A DNA stretch of 64,000 nt. Source: an uncultured Agathobacter sp. (lineage in GTDB: Bacteria; Bacillota; Clostridia; Lachnospirales; Lachnospiraceae). Made by a program: the position numbers and the translations under genes. The stretch lies in assembly GCA_944381555.1 (NCBI GenBank), contig CALWLL010000002.1:1-64000 (forward strand), written 5' to 3'. This document shows positions 33,325 through 58,500 of this stretch, one piece after another. The notes under the pieces were generated by a model. That model was not told where the DNA came from. It saw nothing but the letters and a program-made list of their open reading frames with translations, and did no database searches. The first letter of the stretch is position 1. Every line of letters starts with the position of its first letter.

Positions 33325-35115
33325 CTATGCTTCTTCTGACACTACTTCCGCCAGTAATTTCCCAATTGTCTGCATCATACCGTTGTCTGTTACCCCGAAT
33401 TTTGGAGTACGATTGAAGAAATCAAACGACACCACAACCTCTGGTCTGCCATCTTTCTTAAGAATATACTGCATGAATTTTGTTGATTCCTGCATCACAT
33501 TCATTTGATATGCCATCGGAGAACGTTTTTCCAGATGCGACAAAATACTTTCTATATAATAGTCGTTCGTGTTAAACATTTTCTGATACTCTTCTTCAAA
33601 TATGAAACTCAGTTTTTCAATTGCATTCACATAATTGCCCCTGCTATATGTACGATGCATATCTGCGCCTGTATATATGGCAATACCATCAATATCAAAA
33701 TATGTCTGCATATCCTTCATCACATCATCAATTACATCTTTTCCGTACCGATATAATTTCAGAATCATTTCTGACACTAAAACATGCTTATCCGCATCAC
33801 TGATGGTGGCTTTTAAACCAACACTGCGTTCAGAATCACCATTTTCCACTAATTCACCATGCATGTGTTCTCTATATATAATATAACGGTTCTTGCCTTT
33901 ATCCTTCGCAATGTATAAAGCTTTATCCGCTTTTTTAAATAATCCCTCATAGGCGGTTCCATCATCCGGGTACTTTGATATCCCACATGAATAAGATACC
34001 TTAAGTCCCTCTTTCTCTCCAAACGACCAGTCTGCATGCTTTGCAATCACCTTCATAATTCTTCGCAGGTCATCCTCTGAAGGGACATTTTCCAGTACCA
34101 GCATAAATTCATCACCGCCAAATCTTCCTGCCATTCCGCGCGTCTGTGTCACACTGCGAAAGATTTCTGCGCTTTTTGCAATAACTTCATCGCCAAACAT
34201 ATGCCCATACTTGTCATTGATCTGTTTAAAATCATCTATGTCAATCAGGACAAGATAGACTTTCTGTTTGCTATTCTGGATACATTCCAATGCATACTCA
34301 TTGATGGCACGCTTATTTAAAAGCCCCGTTGCGGCGTCTTTGGCATTTTCTGATAGAAAATAAGACTTCTCGGGTTTTTTATTTCCCGCATAATGCACTA
34401 ATCCAATCATCTTATAATGCACATCTTCTTTGTAAAAAACCGCGCAATTACATTCCAGACGGATTCCCTGCATATCTTCAATGAGCACTTCTGCCTCTAT
34501 CGTCGTCTTAAAACAATCGACGTGTTTGTGTATCATGTCTCCCAACGCCAGAAATTCATCCTTCTGCTTCACAGAAAACTGTGCATTATCCCGCACTCCA
34601 TTCATCGTTTCCGTGAGATTTTTATAGAAAAGCCTTCTGCTTTTTCCATTAAAATATTCATAGATCTGCAGCATATCATCGCTGTAGCTGTATTCCAAAA
34701 AGATACCATCGTGAAGCGACATCATGGTACGATACTTATTTATCTGATCCATACACAGCTTATACCGGTCAGTAATCGCCATGATATCCGTTATCTCAAC
34801 GTCAAAAGAGCGAAAACCTTTTAATACTCTTCCGTTATAACACATCTTCATGTACACATAACGATAGGTATCATACTCTGTCAGTAATCGTACGATCAGA
34901 CATTGCGGTTCTCTGTCAAGTAAGGAAGCCGCCCTTAAAAATACTTCTACATCATCCGGGTGCAGAAGCTCCGGAATGGAAAATCCGCTCTTTTGTCCAA
35001 CAAGATGATAAAATCGTTCATCTGCATTCACAATATAAAAACCATCTCTTACAGATGCTTTCCCATAATAAATTTGAAATTCGTTCTCATTTGTTTTATA
35101 TGCGGTTATATTCAC
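33325..35115 (-). CDS. GGDEF diguanylate cyclase with PAS-like sensor
   Basis: The 596-residue protein is soluble. An N-terminal PAS-like domain (residues about 15-120) leads to a middle region (about 130-280), an intact GGDEF domain (about 283-430, with GRFGGDEFMLVLENV near 330), and a C-terminal GAF-like region of about 165 residues. The intact GGDEF motif predicts synthesis of cyclic di-GMP from GTP. The RxxD product-inhibition site normally five residues before GGDEF is absent. It starts at GTG (35115). A c-di-GMP riboswitch lies about 20 kb away in this window. Confidence 0.9.
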   Translation of the reverse strand: MNITAYKTNENEFQIYYGKASVRDGFYIVNADERFYHLVGQKSGFSIPELLHPDDVEVFLRAASLLDREPQCLIVRLLTEYDTYRYVYMKMCYNGRVLKGFRSFDVEITDIMAITDRYKLCMDQINKYRTMMSLHDGIFLEYSYSDDMLQIYEYFNGKSRRLFYKNLTETMNGVRDNAQFSVKQKDEFLALGDMIHKHVDCFKTTIEAEVLIEDMQGIRLECNCAVFYKEDVHYKMIGLVHYAGNKKPEKSYFLSENAKDAATGLLNKRAINEYALECIQNSKQKVYLVLIDIDDFKQINDKYGHMFGDEVIAKSAEIFRSVTQTRGMAGRFGGDEFMLVLENVPSEDDLRRIMKVIAKHADWSFGEKEGLKVSYSCGISKYPDDGTAYEGLFKKADKALYIAKDKGKNRYIIYREHMHGELVENGDSERSVGLKATISDADKHVLVSEMILKLYRYGKDVIDDVMKDMQTYFDIDGIAIYTGADMHRTYSRGNYVNAIEKLSFIFEEEYQKMFNTNDYYIESILSHLEKRSPMAYQMNVMQESTKFMQYILKKDGRPEVVVSFDFFNRTPKFGVTDNGMMQTIGKLLAEVVSEEA

Positions 35116-53092: not shown

Positions 53093-53566
53093 TTATAGTA
53101 TTTTTTCCATACCGATTTTTTGCGGCGCCAGCCCGCATTTCTCGTAAAACCGCATTGCATCCCGGTTGCATGCCCAGACATTGAGCGTTATATTATAACA
53201 CCCCTGCTCCTTTGCAAAGGCTGCTACATATTCATACAGGGTTTTTCCGATATGCATTCCGCGCTTTGTCTCATCTACACACAAATCATCAATATAAAGC
53301 GTTTTAATATCTGTAAAGATGTTGCTGCCTGCATGCTGTTGAAACCTGCAGAATGCATACCCCACTACCATTTTATTCTCATCTGCCGCTACAAAAACAG
53401 GCTTTTCATTATCCGCAATAATATCTGCCAATTCCTTATCCGTGTACTTTTTGGCATTTGCCTGAAATAAGTCGGGTCTTCCTTTATGATGAACCATTAA
53501 TACTTGATACAGAAGTTTGTTGATTTCTCCGATGTCAGCAATTTCTGCCCGCCTGATGTGTATCAT
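53093..53566 (-). CDS. GNAT family N-acetyltransferase
   Basis: The 157-residue protein has the GNAT acetyl-CoA loop in DLCVDETKRGMHIGKTLYEY (about 92) and the late NVWACNRDAMRFYEKCGL motif. It transfers an acetyl group from acetyl-CoA to an unknown amine. AGAGGAAAGT precedes the ATG at 53566. It is 42 bp downstream of glyA and may be co-transcribed. Confidence 0.88.
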   Translation of the reverse strand: MIHIRRAEIADIGEINKLLYQVLMVHHKGRPDLFQANAKKYTDKELADIIADNEKPVFVAADENKMVVGYAFCRFQQHAGSNIFTDIKTLYIDDLCVDETKRGMHIGKTLYEYVAAFAKEQGCYNITLNVWACNRDAMRFYEKCGLAPQKIGMEKIL

Positions 53567-53608: not shown

Positions 53609-54847
53609 CTATTTTAACGGATATTTTTCTGTTAAGGATTTTACAATCGCACGCGCCTTATCCGCTGCCGCTTCGCCTTCTTTAATCATCATTGCAATTG
53701 CCTCTGCGATTCTATCCATGTCTTCGGTATTCATTCCACGTGAAGTAACCGCAGGAGTTCCAAGTCTTACACCGCTTGTTACAAATGGTGATTTCGGGTC
53801 GTTTGGAATCGTGTTCTTGTTGCAGGTAATATTTACGGAATCCAATAACTTCTCCAATTCTTTTCCTGTCAGATTATAATTGGTTAAATCCACTAACATC
53901 AGATGATTGTCCGTACCATCGGATACAATCTTAATTCCGCGTTTCTTTAGTCCATCACATAATGCCTTGGCATTATCGAGAATACCCTGCTGATAAACCT
54001 TAAAAGACGGGTCTAATGCTTCTTTTAAACATACTGCCTTAGCCGCAATCACATGCATAAGCGGTCCGCCCTGAATTCCCGGGAATAACGCCTTGTTAAA
54101 ATTGTACTTGTCCGCAACTTCCTGACTGGAAAGAATCATACCGCCACGCGGTCCTCGAAGAGTTTTGTGTGTGGTTGTAGTTACCACATCTGCATAACCA
54201 AACGGACTTGGATGAAGCCCCGCAGCCACAAGCCCCGCAATATGAGCCATATCTACCATAAGAAGAGCTCCGCAGGCATCTGCAATTTCGCGGAATTTCT
54301 TAAAATCTATCGTTCTTGCATAAGCTGAAGCACCGGCAATAATCATCTGCGGTCTGCATTCCATAGCAATGTCCATCACCTTCTCATAATCAATAAAGCC
54401 CTCATCATTCACACCATAAGGCACAACCTTAAAATACGCACCCGAAAAGTTAGCAGGGCTTCCATGTGTCAGATGTCCGCCATGATCGAGATTCATACCC
54501 ATGATGGTATCCCCCGGTTTTAGCATCGCAAACTGTACCGCCATATTTGCCTGTGCCCCGGAATGTGGCTGAACATTGACATATTCACAGCCAAACAGCT
54601 TTCTTGCGCGCTCTCTTGCAAGTTCCTCTACGATATCTACACAATCACATCCTCCGTAATATCGCTTTCCCGGATACCCTTCTGCATATTTGTTGGTCAT
54701 AACGCTGCCCATTGCAGACATAACTGCCGGGCTTACCCAGTTTTCAGATGCAATCAATTCAATATGACTATTCTGTCTTTCGAATTCCCTTTCTATTGCA
54801 TTTGCTACTTCCACATCTACCGCACAGATGTCTTCCATTGTGTACAT
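53609..54847 (-). CDS. glyA: Serine hydroxymethyltransferase
   Basis: The 412-residue PLP enzyme interconverts serine and glycine with tetrahydrofolate. The PLP lysine is in [16 protein letters not shown] (about 228); [12 protein letters not shown] and [17 protein letters not shown] are also conserved. AAGGAG precedes the ATG. A TATAAT element about 20 nt upstream could be its own -10 box. It is the main one-carbon supplier in this window. Confidence 0.97.
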
Positions 54848-54917
54848 TTTTCTATTCTCCTTGTATTATAAAGTAGTAGTGTTTATAGACCCTCTCCAAG
54901 GTCTGCATACCACACTA

Positions 54918-55183
54918 TCAAAGATACTGTGGATTGTCCTTCAAAAAAATTGGTTCAAATTTCATGCGCGGATATTTTTCAATCAGGTAATCATATACCC
55001 GCCTGCTTACAGCATATTTCGGCATGACCTATTAAAGGTTTCAACTGCTTTATCATTCACAACATGCCCACATCTTTTGCACAATATTGTATCAAATTCG
55101 CCTGATGCTATGTCATCATAGGAATGTATCATAAATGCAACAGCTTCTGACAAATCACCATAATTTCTTTCATTGATATTCAT
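54918..55183 (-). pseudogene. Small Cys-pair protein under c-di-GMP riboswitch, split by a -1 frameshift
   Basis: Frame A (55007-55183) starts MNINERNYGDLSEAVAFMIH behind AGGGAG. It contains CKRCGHVVNDKAVETFNRS and then stops after 58 codons. Frame B (54918-55025), overlapping it, reads MPKYAVSRRVYDYLIEKYP and continues to FLKDNPQYL. One extra base near 55024-55027 would join them into a protein of about 89 residues, so this looks like a single gene with a -1 break. No family recognised. It is the only gene directly downstream of the riboswitch. Confidence 0.55.
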
Positions 55184-55229
55184 GGTGCTATTCTCCCTAC
55201 TGGCTTCATAACTATATATCTTTCTAGTT

Positions 55230-55272
55230 AATAAAAATTGCAGTTAAATGAACATTCTCATCCCAACTGCAA
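55230..55272 (-). terminator. Riboswitch expression-platform terminator
   Basis: On the minus strand TTGCAGTT (55265-55272) and AACTGCAA (55238-55245) form a perfect 8-bp stem with a 19-nt loop. TTTTTATTAAC follows. The 5' arm overlaps the last bases of the aptamer (GGGTTGC), so aptamer folding and termination compete. Confidence 0.7.
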
Positions 55273-55350
55273 CCCAACCATCCTATAATATAAATCATTA
55301 CTTAGATTTGTAGCTTTGTGTCCCTGCGTTTCCACAAGTTTACCCATTAT
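55262..55350 (-). promoter_or_regulatory. Cyclic di-GMP-I (GEMM) riboswitch aptamer
   Basis: The minus-strand RNA follows the GEMM-I pattern. GGGUAAAC opens a stem, CUUGUG-GAAA-CGCAGG (6 bp with a GAAA tetraloop), followed by the conserved GGGACACAAAGC, a variable P3 arm (UACAAAUCUAAG onward) and the closing AUAGGAUGGUUGGGUUGC. Compared with the usual GGGACGCAAAGCC it has one change (G to A). These RNAs bind c-di-GMP and control downstream genes. Identified by comparison with the remembered consensus; no covariance search was run. Confidence 0.78.
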
Positions 55351-55450
55351 TTATTTTTAACAATATAACGGTAGCACATTCAGCATACCTTTTCAAGCAT
55401 ACAATGCAGGTCACAGCTATGGTAATATTTCATGGCTGATATAACCAGCA

Positions 55451-55478
55451 AAAAAGGAGGAGTCAAAATGACCCCTCC
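55451..55478 (-). terminator. Intrinsic terminator after PFOR
   Basis: On the minus strand GGAGGGGTCA and TGACTCCTCC (one G-U-type mismatch) are followed by TTTTTTGCTGG, 33 nt after the PFOR stop. Confidence 0.85.
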
Positions 55479-55510
55479 CTGTTTGCGTTTCATAATCTAT
55501 GCACGCTTTA

Positions 55511-58500
55511 TTATGCGTTCTCACCGGCATAAAGTGTTACAAGTTTCTTTAAGTGTTCGTAACGGTCTTTTGCGTTAGCTTCAGAACGGGCAAATAATTC
55601 AGCAGCTCTTTGTGGGTTAGCCTTAGCAAGTGATGCATAACGGTTTTCACCCTTAAGGAATTCCTGATAATCGCCTGTTGGCTCTTTGCTGTCTAAGATA
55701 AATGCATTCTTTCCGGCAAGTTTCAATTCCGGATTGAAACGGAAGTTATGCCAGTAACCAGCCTCAACAGCAAGTTTCTCTTCTGTCTGTGCTTTGCTCA
55801 TACCCTTCTTGATGCCATGATTGATACATGGAGCATAAGCGATAATGAGTGATGGTCCCGGATAAGCTTCTGCTTCCGCTAGAGCTTTTACCGTCTGGTT
55901 CATATCAGCACCCATAGAGATATGTGCAACGTATACATAGCCGTAGCTCATTGCAATACCTGCAAGGTCTTTCTTCTTTGTTTCTTTACCGGCTGCCGCA
56001 AACTGTGCGATAGCGCCTACCGGTGTAGCTTTTGAAGACTGTCCGCCTGTGTTTGAGTAAACTTCTGTATCGAATACCATAACATTGATATCTTTACCGG
56101 AAGCTAAGATATGGTCAACACCACCGAAACCGATGTCGTATGCCCATCCGTCGCCACCGAATACCCACTGTGATTTCTTAGCAAGGAAATCTTTCTCTTT
56201 TAAGATTTCTTTTGCTTTATCGCAACCGCAAGCCTCCAAAGCAGCTACTAATTTCTCGGTAGCAGGACCGTTTGTAACACCGCTTGCAAATGTGTCGTTC
56301 CATTCAGCGATAGCAGCTTTTACATCATCATTTGCTGTTTCTGCAAGAACGTCTAATTCAGCTTTTAATCTGTCACGGATTGCTCTCTGAGCAAGTAACA
56401 TACCATAACCGAATTCAGCGGCATCCTCAAATAATGAGTTAGACCATGCCGGTCCCTGTCCCTTCTTATTAACGGTATATGGTGTAGACGGTGAAGAGTT
56501 ACCCCAGATGGATGAACATCCGGTTGCGTTAGCAATGTACATTCTATCACCAAATAACTGTGTAATCAATTTAGCATACGGAGTCTCTCCACATCCGCCG
56601 CAAGCTCCTGAGAACTCAAGCAACGGCTGTTTGAACTGAGAACCTTTTACAGAAACGAGTCTGAATTTCTCGATAACTTCTTCTTTCTCTGGGAGAGTTA
56701 CTGCATAATCAAAGTATTTCTGTTCATCTGCATTTGCTTCAAAGTTCTGCATTGTAATAGCCTGAACCTTGTCCGGACATACGTTTACGCATGAGCCGCA
56801 GCCCGTACAGTCATAAGCAGAAACAACGATAGCAAATTTGTATCCAGGCATCTGCATTAAGTCTTTCATCTGCATGCCTTCCGGTGCATTTGCAGCTTCT
56901 TCTTCTGTCATGGCTACCGGACGAATTGCAGCGTGCGGACATACATAAGAACACTGGTTACATTCGATACATTTTGTTGCATCCCAAACAGGAACGTCTA
57001 CTGCGATACCACGTTTTTCAAATGCAGATGTACCGGAAGGTGTCTGTCCTATTTCGTATTTCTTAGTCACAGATACCGGAATTGTATTGCCTAACTGTGC
57101 ATTAACCTTAGACTGAACATTTTTAACGAACTCAATTGCATCAGCCGTTCCGTGTGTTCCGATTTCAGAACCAAGAACATCATCCGGGCAGTTCTTCCAG
57201 CTTTCCGGAACTTCAACCTTAACGTAAGCAGTTGCTCCGGCATCAATTGCGTCATGATTCATCTTAACAACGTCATCACCCTTCTTAGAATAAGAGCGTG
57301 TAGCTGCGTCTTTCATTAACTTAATAACTTCTTCCTCCGGAATGAGTTTTGTTAATGAGAAGAATGCTGACTGGAGAATTGTATTGATACGGTTTCCAAG
57401 TCCGATTTCTTTACCAATCTTAACACCATCAATGATGTAGAAGTTGATATTGTTTTCAGCAATATATCTCTTAACCTGTCCAGGAAGTTTTTCATCCAGC
57501 TCTTCTACTGTCCATGGTGTGTTGAAGAGGAATGTACCGCCCGGTACAAGGTCCTGAACCATGTTGTATTTGTGGATGTATGCTGTACAGTGGCATGCTA
57601 CAAAGTTTGCCTGTGAAATAAGGTATGTTGAGTGAATTGGAGTATGTCCAAAACGCAGGTGGGAAATTGTAACACCACCGGATTTCTTTGAGTCATAATC
57701 AAAGTATGCCTGTGCATACATATCTGTGTTATCACCGATAATCTTGATAGAGTTCTTATTTGCGCCTACCGTACCGTCAGCACCAAGTCCCCAGAATTTA
57801 CAGTTTGTTGTTCCGGCAGGAGTTGTAACCGGATTTTCTTTTACCTCAAGAGAAAGATTGGTTACGTCATCAATGATACCGATTGTGAACTCTTCTTTTT
57901 CTTCGTTTCTGTATACAGCGATAATCTGTCCCGGTGTCGTATCCTTAGAACCTAAGCCATAACGGCCTCTTGTTACCTTGCAGCCTTCGAATTTTGTTCC
58001 GCGAAGCGCAGCAACAACATCAAGATACAATGGTTCTGCATAAGCGCCAGGTTCTTTTGTTCTGTCTAAAACAGCGATAGATTTTACTGTATCAGGAATA
58101 GCGTCGATTAAAGCCTCCTTAACGAATGGTCTGTAAAGACGAACTTTAACAACACCGACTTTTTCTCCCTTAGATACTAAATAATCAACTGTTTCATCGA
58201 TTGTTTCACAAACAGAACCCATTGCGATGATAACTTTCTCAGCATCAGGAGCACCATGATAGTTGAACAATTTGTAGTTAGTACCAATCTTAGCATTTAC
58301 TCTGTCCATAGCTTCCTGAACTTTTGCAGGTAATGCATCATAAGTCTGGTTGCAGGCTTCTCTTGACTGGAAGAAAAGGTCCGGGTTCTGGGCAGATCCC
58401 ATTTCACATGGATGGTTTGGATTTAATGCATTCTTACGGAATTCGTCAATTGCATTCATATCTACCATATCCTTCAGATCTTCGTAATCCCATGTTTCGA

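What the first reader, a model, noticed from the sequence alone, without database searches (positions are those of the whole stretch)
55230..55350. Cyclic di-GMP-I riboswitch with a visible terminator switch
Seen: a minus-strand GEMM-I-like aptamer with a GAAA-capped stem, GGGACACAAAGC core and GGGUUGC closing end, followed by an 8-bp terminator stem and T-run whose 5' arm shares bases with the aptamer end. Known: c-di-GMP-I riboswitches control genes in Clostridia. Inference: folding of the bound aptamer should block the terminator, so c-di-GMP would turn the gene ON. The only gene downstream is a small unknown one.
Basis: partly seen in the sequence, partly recalled or inferred. Interest (0 to 1): 0.7.

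Follow-up and report, generated by a model that had tools for sequence, protein, structure and literature searches.

The report
Cyclic-di-GMP ON switch before glyA
This is an ordinary cyclic-di-GMP-sensing RNA switch, built so that the signal should let transcription continue, and it sits in an unusual place: between nifJ and the serine-glycine enzyme gene glyA, in front of the remains of other genes.

Summary
A full-length c-di-GMP-I (GEMM-I) aptamer lies at 55354-55265 (-), 69.1 bits against a cut-off of 35. The 5' arm of the terminator that follows (55272-55265 / 55245-55238, then UUUUUAUU) is the aptamer's own 3' end, including the ligand-pairing C. Shuffled sequence gave such a hairpin in 18 of 2000 trials, and 9 of 29 other fetched c-di-GMP-I loci have the same layout. 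Bound aptamer and terminator exclude each other, so an ON switch is the best reading; the bases at the ligand-choice positions are those of c-di-GMP binders.

The context was missed. It is the only c-di-GMP-I match found in this genome. "Only a small unknown gene" downstream is incomplete: behind a 58-aa orphan ORF come a short fragment resembling the N-terminus of an AbiEi antitoxin, a remnant of an IS110-element end, and glyA, with no U-run terminator or scan-level promoter found between. None of 29 other fetched glyA loci has a known RNA family beside glyA; in two of them nifJ also directly precedes glyA.

Known kind, new member; possible capture of glyA is the unusual part.

The parts
55265..55354 (-). 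c-di-GMP-I (GEMM-I) riboswitch aptamer, full length
   Evidence: RF01051, 69.1 bits, model positions 1-87; 22 of 22 consensus pairs are standard pairs
55344..55344 (-). G at the position of Vc2 G20 (ligand choice: c-di-GMP rather than cGAMP)
   Evidence: residue names from passages of PMC11218506; its role in choice recalled and hinted at in a passage of PMC9262584
55317..55317 (-). A at the position of Vc2 A47 (stacks in the ligand)
   Evidence: stacking role recalled
55269..55269 (-). C at the position of Vc2 C92 (pairs with the ligand); lies inside the terminator's 5' arm
55238..55272 (-). Intrinsic terminator: arms 55272-55265 and 55245-55238 with a stacked inner helix; the 5' arm is the last 8 nt of the aptamer match
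55230..55237 (-). U-run (UUUUUAUU) of the terminator
   Evidence: sequence
55362..55367 (-). Possible -10 box TATATT just before the aptamer; no convincing -35 box
   Evidence: sequence; the promoter scan of 54800-55560 found no minus-strand site; inference
55007..55183 (-). ORF1, 58 aa, CxxC-containing orphan with a ribosome-binding-site-like AGGGAG
   Evidence: no relative at E<=1e-3 besides itself in 98 and in 392 genomes, none in genome contigs, viral contigs, phages or plasmids; borderline coding score
54918..55025 (-). ORF2, 35 aa: fragment resembling the N-terminus of an AbiEi-type (type IV) antitoxin, overlapping ORF1 by 19 nt
   Evidence: 72% over 27 aa to G113/L162, E 2.2e-4; L162 protein is AbiEi by PADLOC, E 4e-83; 16.6 bits to a profile of 14 N-termini vs at most 7.5 for 2000 shuffles
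54853..54937 (-). Remnant resembling the noncoding end of an IS110-family element, with a hairpin at 54917-54877
   Evidence: 79-94% identical to parts of 21 other places in 11 other genomes of the genus; some copies adjoin an IS110 transposase (one checked, PF01548 E 1.4e-44); model R1, 82.9 bits
53609..54847 (-). glyA, serine hydroxymethyltransferase, possibly in the switched transcript
   Evidence: PF00464, E 6e-174; no hairpin followed by a U-run found between the switch and glyA
53093..53566 (-). GNAT acetyltransferase gene after glyA
   Evidence: PF00583, E 1.2e-19
55454..55480 (-). Terminator of the upstream nifJ gene, which separates nifJ from the switch
   Evidence: 12 pairs; -23.6 kcal/mol for a longer hairpin over the same site

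Best explanation
A c-di-GMP-I riboswitch of the transcription-ON type. Shown: the aptamer, its ligand-contact residues, and a terminator whose 5' arm is the aptamer's 3' end. Inferred: without c-di-GMP the new RNA folds into the terminator, taking the C that would pair with the ligand, and transcription stops at about 55230, some 35 nt past the aptamer. With c-di-GMP bound, that C and its neighbours are held in the pocket, the lowest four base pairs of the terminator cannot form, the remaining hairpin ends 4 nt short of the U-run, and RNA polymerase reads on into ORF1, ORF2 and, with no U-run terminator in the way, possibly glyA. The block between nifJ and glyA looks like an insertion or replacement in this lineage: the switch with what may be its old target operon (a small orphan gene plus the apparent start of an AbiEi antitoxin gene), cut by an IS110-type insertion of which only an end remains next to glyA.
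For: RF01051 match and 22/22 pairs. Ligand residues G, A, C. Terminator overlaps the aptamer, 18 of 2000 in shuffles. Same placement of the terminator arm (start 9-11 nt inside the aptamer match) in 9 of 29 other fetched c-di-GMP-I loci, 7 of them among the 12 same-genus loci. The terminator fold is favoured without ligand: -27.2 against -24.0 kcal/mol with the aptamer enforced, probability above 0.99 for the terminator pair examined. The genome has 9 GGDEF matches in 8 reading frames, one inside this window at 34341-33886, so the signal is likely made. Layout.
Against: No binding or termination data. With the aptamer enforced, a shortened hairpin (GCAGUU...AACUGC) still forms in the energy model, which does not know the ligand contacts, so the ON state rests on the pocket holding the G and C at 55270-55269 and on the gap to the U-run. 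No clear sigma-70 promoter was found before the aptamer. Of the 29 other loci, 13 have their best terminator outside the aptamer, 5 have none found and 2 have only a weak overlapping hairpin, so the ON layout is not universal. Read-through into glyA is inferred from the absence of a U-run terminator.
Confidence: 0.82

Rival explanations
1. The aptamer is intact but the locus is a relic: the promoter is weak, the target operon is broken by an IS110 remnant, and the switch no longer controls anything that matters.
For: ORF2 matches only about 27 aa of a 216-aa reading frame and that similarity stops about where the IS110 remnant begins; ORF1 has no relative found; no minus-strand promoter-like site; the arrangement is not seen in the other fetched loci.
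Against: All 22 aptamer pairs, the ligand residues and the terminator are intact, which would be unlikely after long neglect; a TATATT box lies at a fitting distance (sequence); glyA follows without a U-run terminator.
Confidence: 0.3
2. glyA is transcribed from its own start downstream of the switch, so c-di-GMP affects only ORF1/ORF2.
For: glyA is needed for growth in most bacteria (recalled), and 24 of 29 other fetched glyA loci have an exact TATAAT within 150 nt before glyA. The IS110 remnant in the window also carries a TATAAT directly before the glyA ribosome-binding site.
Against: That TATAAT has no -35 partner and would start transcription inside the ribosome-binding site (inference from sequence); the scan found no minus-strand promoter-like site in 54800-55560, but it also found none for the switch itself, so its silence weighs little.
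Confidence: 0.45
3. The RNA senses 3',3'-cGAMP (GEMM-Ib) rather than c-di-GMP.
For: A well-described ON switch with this layout, pilM, senses cGAMP (passages of PMC9262584).
Against: The window has G, not A, at the G20 position; A at that site marks cGAMP-type variants (recalled). The genome has GGDEF proteins; whether any of them makes cGAMP was not looked at.
Confidence: 0.05
4. An OFF switch, in which ligand helps the terminator, as in Cd1.
For: Cd1 of C. difficile is OFF (passages), and C. difficile flgB expression falls when a c-di-GMP synthase is overexpressed (passages).
Against: In Cd1 aptamer and terminator can coexist and the antiterminator takes the aptamer strand; here the terminator itself takes that strand.
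Confidence: 0.04

Closest known systems
c-di-GMP-I riboswitch family (RF01051, GEMM-I)
   Same: Full-length match, structure, GAAA loop, ligand residues
   Different: U at the A18 position (also U in 10 of the 29 other loci by fixed offset); one change in the tetraloop-receptor strand (UAGG for the uAuG of the consensus, alignment); no strong outer P1 helix seen by eye
pilM ON switch of Geobacter metallireducens (PMC9262584, passages only)
   Same: Aptamer and terminator mutually exclusive; terminator takes the C that pairs with the ligand
   Different: pilM senses cGAMP; the window has the c-di-GMP-type G
Cd1 of Clostridioides difficile (PMC9262584, passages only)
   Same: Clostridial c-di-GMP-I aptamer acting on transcription with an intrinsic terminator
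   Different: Cd1 is OFF; aptamer and terminator can coexist there
Same-genus c-di-GMP-I loci L023, L027-L030, L033, L038
   Same: Same position of the terminator's 5' arm, 9-10 nt inside the aptamer match
   Different: Different downstream genes, e.g. DUF4176 and a YwqH-like protein in L027, a CBM_2 protein in L038; no nifJ or glyA match in the fetched stretches; L033 has A at the G20 position

Membership tests
c-di-GMP-I riboswitch (RF01051) | Covariance-model score above the curated cut-off, full length | tested here: met
   69.1 bits vs 35, positions 1-87; best of its clan at this place
c-di-GMP-I riboswitch (RF01051) | Conserved secondary structure of the family | tested here: met
   22 of 22 pairs are standard pairs
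c-di-GMP-I riboswitch (RF01051) | GAAA tetraloop and receptor | tested here: met
   GAAA present; receptor strand has one change (alignment)
c-di-GMP-I riboswitch (RF01051) | G20, A47 and C92 of the ligand pocket | tested here: met
   G, A and C; residue identities from passages of PMC11218506
c-di-GMP-I riboswitch (RF01051) | Binds c-di-GMP | not testable with these tools
   needs in-line probing or calorimetry
Transcription-ON expression platform | Terminator 5' arm lies within the aptamer, so the two exclude each other | tested here: met
   a shortened hairpin remains possible beside the aptamer in the energy model
Transcription-ON expression platform | Ligand raises read-through | not testable with these tools
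   needs in vitro transcription
cGAMP (GEMM-Ib) riboswitch | A at the position of G20 (criterion recalled) | tested here: not met
   G at 55344
AbiEi antitoxin (ORF2) | Full-length AbiEi domain | tested here: not met
   only about 27 aa resemble it; ORF2 itself has no Pfam, PADLOC or NCBIfam hit at E<=1; fragment similarity only
IS110 element (remnant before glyA) | Transposase gene beside the noncoding end | tested here: not met
   no transposase signature within 1500 bases on either side of the remnant (L107); only about 85 nt of the end remain

The most novel reading that the evidence does not exclude
A mobile-element event has put the housekeeping enzyme gene glyA under a c-di-GMP riboswitch: its ordinary promoter was displaced and glyA transcription now depends on c-di-GMP-controlled read-through, linking a second messenger to one-carbon metabolism in this one lineage.
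Probability: 0.3. Interest if true: 0.55.

Novelty: new member of a known kind. Interest (0 to 1): 0.3.

Why it matters
The switch is ordinary, but it is the only c-di-GMP-I match found in a genome with 8 GGDEF reading frames and it stands before glyA. If read-through reaches glyA, it would be a natural case of a signalling riboswitch moving onto a core metabolic gene. The two literature searches that paired c-di-GMP and riboswitch with glyA or serine hydroxymethyltransferase listed 9 and 2 papers; judged by titles and abstract openings, plus passages of two of them, none describes c-di-GMP control of glyA. In the passages of PMC12452182 glyA appears with tandem glycine riboswitches. The remains beside the switch (an AbiEi-like fragment and an IS110 end) suggest how such moves could happen.

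Tried and rejected
ORF1 as a member of a known family: no match above cut-off in Pfam (best PF08271, E 0.041, 13.9 bits vs 29) or NCBIfam (best NF047912, E 0.01, 15.7 bits vs 37), none in PADLOC, PHROGs only weak (best E 0.02), and no homologue at E<=1e-3 besides itself in 98 genomes, 392 genomes, genome contigs, viral contigs, phages or plasmids. In one search, 12 of the 392 genomes other than the own one gave weak matches (E 0.026-0.093), judged chance.

ORF2 as something other than AbiEi: three further weak matches (E 0.0085, 0.016, 0.032) fall in frames that look unrelated (by eye a GGDEF protein, a 39-aa frame, a peptidase-like protein), so the AbiEi match (E 2.2e-4 and 0.0036) is better but not far out of reach of chance; the profile test strengthens it.

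A conserved nifJ-riboswitch-glyA arrangement: rejected for what was seen. None of the 29 other fetched c-di-GMP-I loci (of 64 others listed) carries a nifJ or glyA match in its stretch. glyA was found in 57 of 62 genus genomes; 30 loci were fetched, the own one included, and the 29 others hold no Rfam family at gathering score. The remaining loci were not checked.

A c-di-GMP-controlled ribozyme like that of C. difficile: no group I intron or other Rfam family was found between the switch and glyA, and no c-di-GMP-II hit in the genome (whose controls also gave none). The conserved element before glyA turned out to resemble the end of IS110-family elements.

AbiE loci under c-di-GMP switches elsewhere: no Rfam family at gathering score in 14 fetched abiEi loci.

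Full report
Observation. cmscan of the window against Rfam at gathering thresholds gave exactly one match: RF01051, c-di-GMP-I, at 55354-55265 on the minus strand, 69.1 bits against a gathering score of 35, full length. The more permissive scan of 54700-55520 kept it as the best of its clan. Mapping the family structure onto the sequence gives 22 pairs, all standard. The positions corresponding to Vc2 G20, A47 and C92 hold G (55344), A (55317) and C (55269) (residue names from passages of PMC11218506). So this is a c-di-GMP-type aptamer by sequence.

The terminator. The last 8 nt of the aptamer match, UUGCAGUU (55272-55265), are complementary to AACUGCAA (55245-55238), followed by UUUUUAUU; an inner helix makes the whole hairpin longer, -15.2 kcal/mol. 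When the 70 nt after the aptamer were shuffled with dinucleotides kept, 18 of 2000 gave an overlapping hairpin of at least 8 bp with a T-rich tail, 11 of 2000 at -8 kcal/mol or better. I applied the same scan to 29 other c-di-GMP-I loci: those fetched, out of 65 matches listed with the own one included. In 9 the best terminator starts 9-11 nt inside the aptamer match, as here (L020, L023, L026-L030, L033, L038); in 13 the best terminator lies outside the aptamer; in 5 none was found; 2 (L021, L024) gave only weak overlapping hairpins that I do not count. Of the 12 same-genus loci, 7 are of the overlapping kind. The window is therefore one of a recurrent layout.

How it should work. Without ligand the terminator fold is favoured (-27.2 versus -24.0 kcal/mol with the aptamer enforced; probability above 0.99 for the terminator pair examined). 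The terminator takes the C at 55269, which in the bound aptamer pairs with the ligand. The ON switch pilM is described in the same terms: aptamer and terminator mutually exclusive, with the ligand-pairing C sequestered by the terminator (passages of PMC9262584). By contrast Cd1 of C. difficile is OFF, with aptamer and terminator able to coexist (same passages), and C. difficile flgB expression falls when a c-di-GMP synthase is overexpressed (passages of PMC3649979). The caution is that a shortened hairpin remains possible beside the aptamer in the energy model; that the ON state really reads through is inference.

Genome setting. Only one c-di-GMP-I match was found in this genome (2.31 Mb in 66 contigs, 97.8% complete) and no c-di-GMP-II match (where the controls also gave none). 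Nine GGDEF matches in eight reading frames are present, one of them inside the window. In the genus, 15 of 59 other genomes had a c-di-GMP-I match (strict filters, many genomes incomplete).

What lies downstream. On the same strand there follow: ORF1 (58 aa, 55183-55007), for which I found no relative at E<=1e-3 besides itself and whose codon score is borderline (0.026; 5th percentile of 217 gene pieces 0.001, 95th percentile of 434 out-of-frame pieces -0.011); ORF2 (35 aa, 55025-54918), overlapping ORF1 by 19 nt, with a gene-like codon score (0.175 against a gene mean of 0.184); and glyA (54847-53609; PF00464) with a GNAT gene behind it. ORF2 matches the N-terminal part of a 216-aa reading frame in two genomes of the same family (72% over 27 aa, E 2.2e-4; 62%, E 0.0036); three weaker matches (E 0.0085-0.032) fall in frames that look unrelated. 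Both of those 216-aa proteins are AbiEi by PADLOC (E 4e-83 and 9.4e-83), though Pfam gives only sub-threshold hits and NCBIfam's AbiEi model, tried on the first, is far below its cut-off (15.5 bits vs 150). Against a profile of 14 N-termini (these two and 12 of the 14 matches that one search found with the first; two weak partial matches, L177 and L178, were left out) ORF2 scores 16.6 bits, the best of 2000 shuffles 7.5. I read ORF2 as an abiEi fragment; the match is short and the label of moderate certainty. No AbiEi match at E<=0.01 appeared in this genome (the fragment itself is too short to ring there).

The IS110 remnant. The stretch 54937-54853, ending at the glyA ribosome-binding site, resembles sequences at 21 other places in 11 other genomes of the genus, 79-94% identical over 33-85 nt; a 22nd match (G056) is a 26-nt match outside this stretch. 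A covariance model built from 16 copies (R1; 91.7% of cells paired, 4 of 9 pairs with changes on both sides, 0 of 500 shuffles reaching these values, though related sequences inflate this test) found 26 places in 14 of 62 genus genomes and 29 in 16 of 295 genomes of the order, the window included and, in the genus, the copies it was built from. In 9 of 44 copies that carried the motif pattern an IS110 N-terminal signature was seen upstream on the opposite strand; many of the others have short flanks. Three of four stretches taken for a closer look hold a 402-aa transposase frame there (L157-L159; in L160 only pieces), and the one scanned, L158, has PF01548 and PF02371. In the window there is no such signature nearby (L107), so this is a remnant. 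Its similarity begins (54937) about where the AbiEi similarity of ORF2 ends (54930), so an insertion probably cut that gene.

Comparison with relatives. glyA was found in 57 of 62 genus genomes. Thirty loci were fetched, the own one included. None of the 29 others holds an Rfam family at gathering score; 24 of 29 have an exact TATAAT within 150 nt before glyA. Two of them (L064, L077) have nifJ directly before glyA, with a gap of about 200 nt against 663 nt in the window. The window appears to keep part of that gap next to the nifJ terminator (alignment with L064) but has the switch, ORF1, ORF2 and the IS110 remnant in place of the rest. This supports insertion or replacement in this lineage; the number of events cannot be told.

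Does the switch control glyA? Between the switch's terminator and glyA, the scan lists four hairpins (-7.0 to -14.0 kcal/mol, the strongest being that of the IS110 remnant); their tails (ATTTGTCA, ATTTGATA, CATGTTGT, CTACTTTA) are not U-runs. The simple scan found no minus-strand promoter-like site in 54800-55560. Read-through into glyA is therefore plausible but untested. The promoter of the switch itself is also unconvincing: a TATATT at 55367-55362 without a -35 partner, whereas several relatives have clear TTGACA boxes before the aptamer, for example L026, L027 and L029.

Verdict. The statement on downstream genes needs correction, and the possible control of glyA is the one point worth an experiment. 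Searches for c-di-GMP, riboswitch and glyA or serine hydroxymethyltransferase listed 9 and 2 papers; of these I read passages of PMC12452182 and PMC9495176 only, and neither set of passages describes c-di-GMP control of glyA. A search for 'c-di-GMP riboswitch' with Lachnospiraceae listed one review, not opened.

Noticed in passing
window 54937-54853 (-); L042-L060 (not L052), L103-L156: End of an IS110-family element with a conserved hairpin (AGACC-UUGGAGAG-GGUCU, outer UAGU/ACUA helix) that usually stops at a GAGGA-like sequence just before a start codon: in 26 of 44 loci with the motif pattern, the window included, the longest reading frame starts 46-56 nt after the start of TTGGAG (10 further loci lacked the pattern and were left out). 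A few copies (before argG-like L124, potA-like L126, endonuclease-IV-like L127, dtd-like L120; names by eye) show no transposase signature in the fetched flanks. No Rfam match that I take as real. Either these elements insert at ribosome-binding sites, or the hairpin is a leader element in its own right. A search for IS110, bridge RNA and Shine-Dalgarno together listed no paper.
   Followed up: partly
L033 872-973, L035 1501-1602, L039 1501-1576: Three of 30 c-di-GMP-I loci have A instead of G at the G20 position (fixed offset), the change recalled for cGAMP-sensing or relaxed variants; L021 and L024 show U at the C92 offset.
   Followed up: no
L027 1661-2432: A c-di-GMP-I ON-type switch in a genome with seven copies (G015) stands before DUF4176 and a YwqH-like protein, which I recall as associated with type VII secretion.
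   Followed up: no
L069-L072, L074, L078, L079, L084, L085, L089 (glyA leaders): Ten of 29 other fetched glyA loci share GACA-NN-TGTTTTT in the 150 nt before glyA, after a TATAAT; I do not see it in the window's glyA leader.
   Followed up: no
window 33325-35115 (-): A GGDEF-domain gene (possible c-di-GMP synthase) lies about 20 kb from the switch.
   Followed up: no
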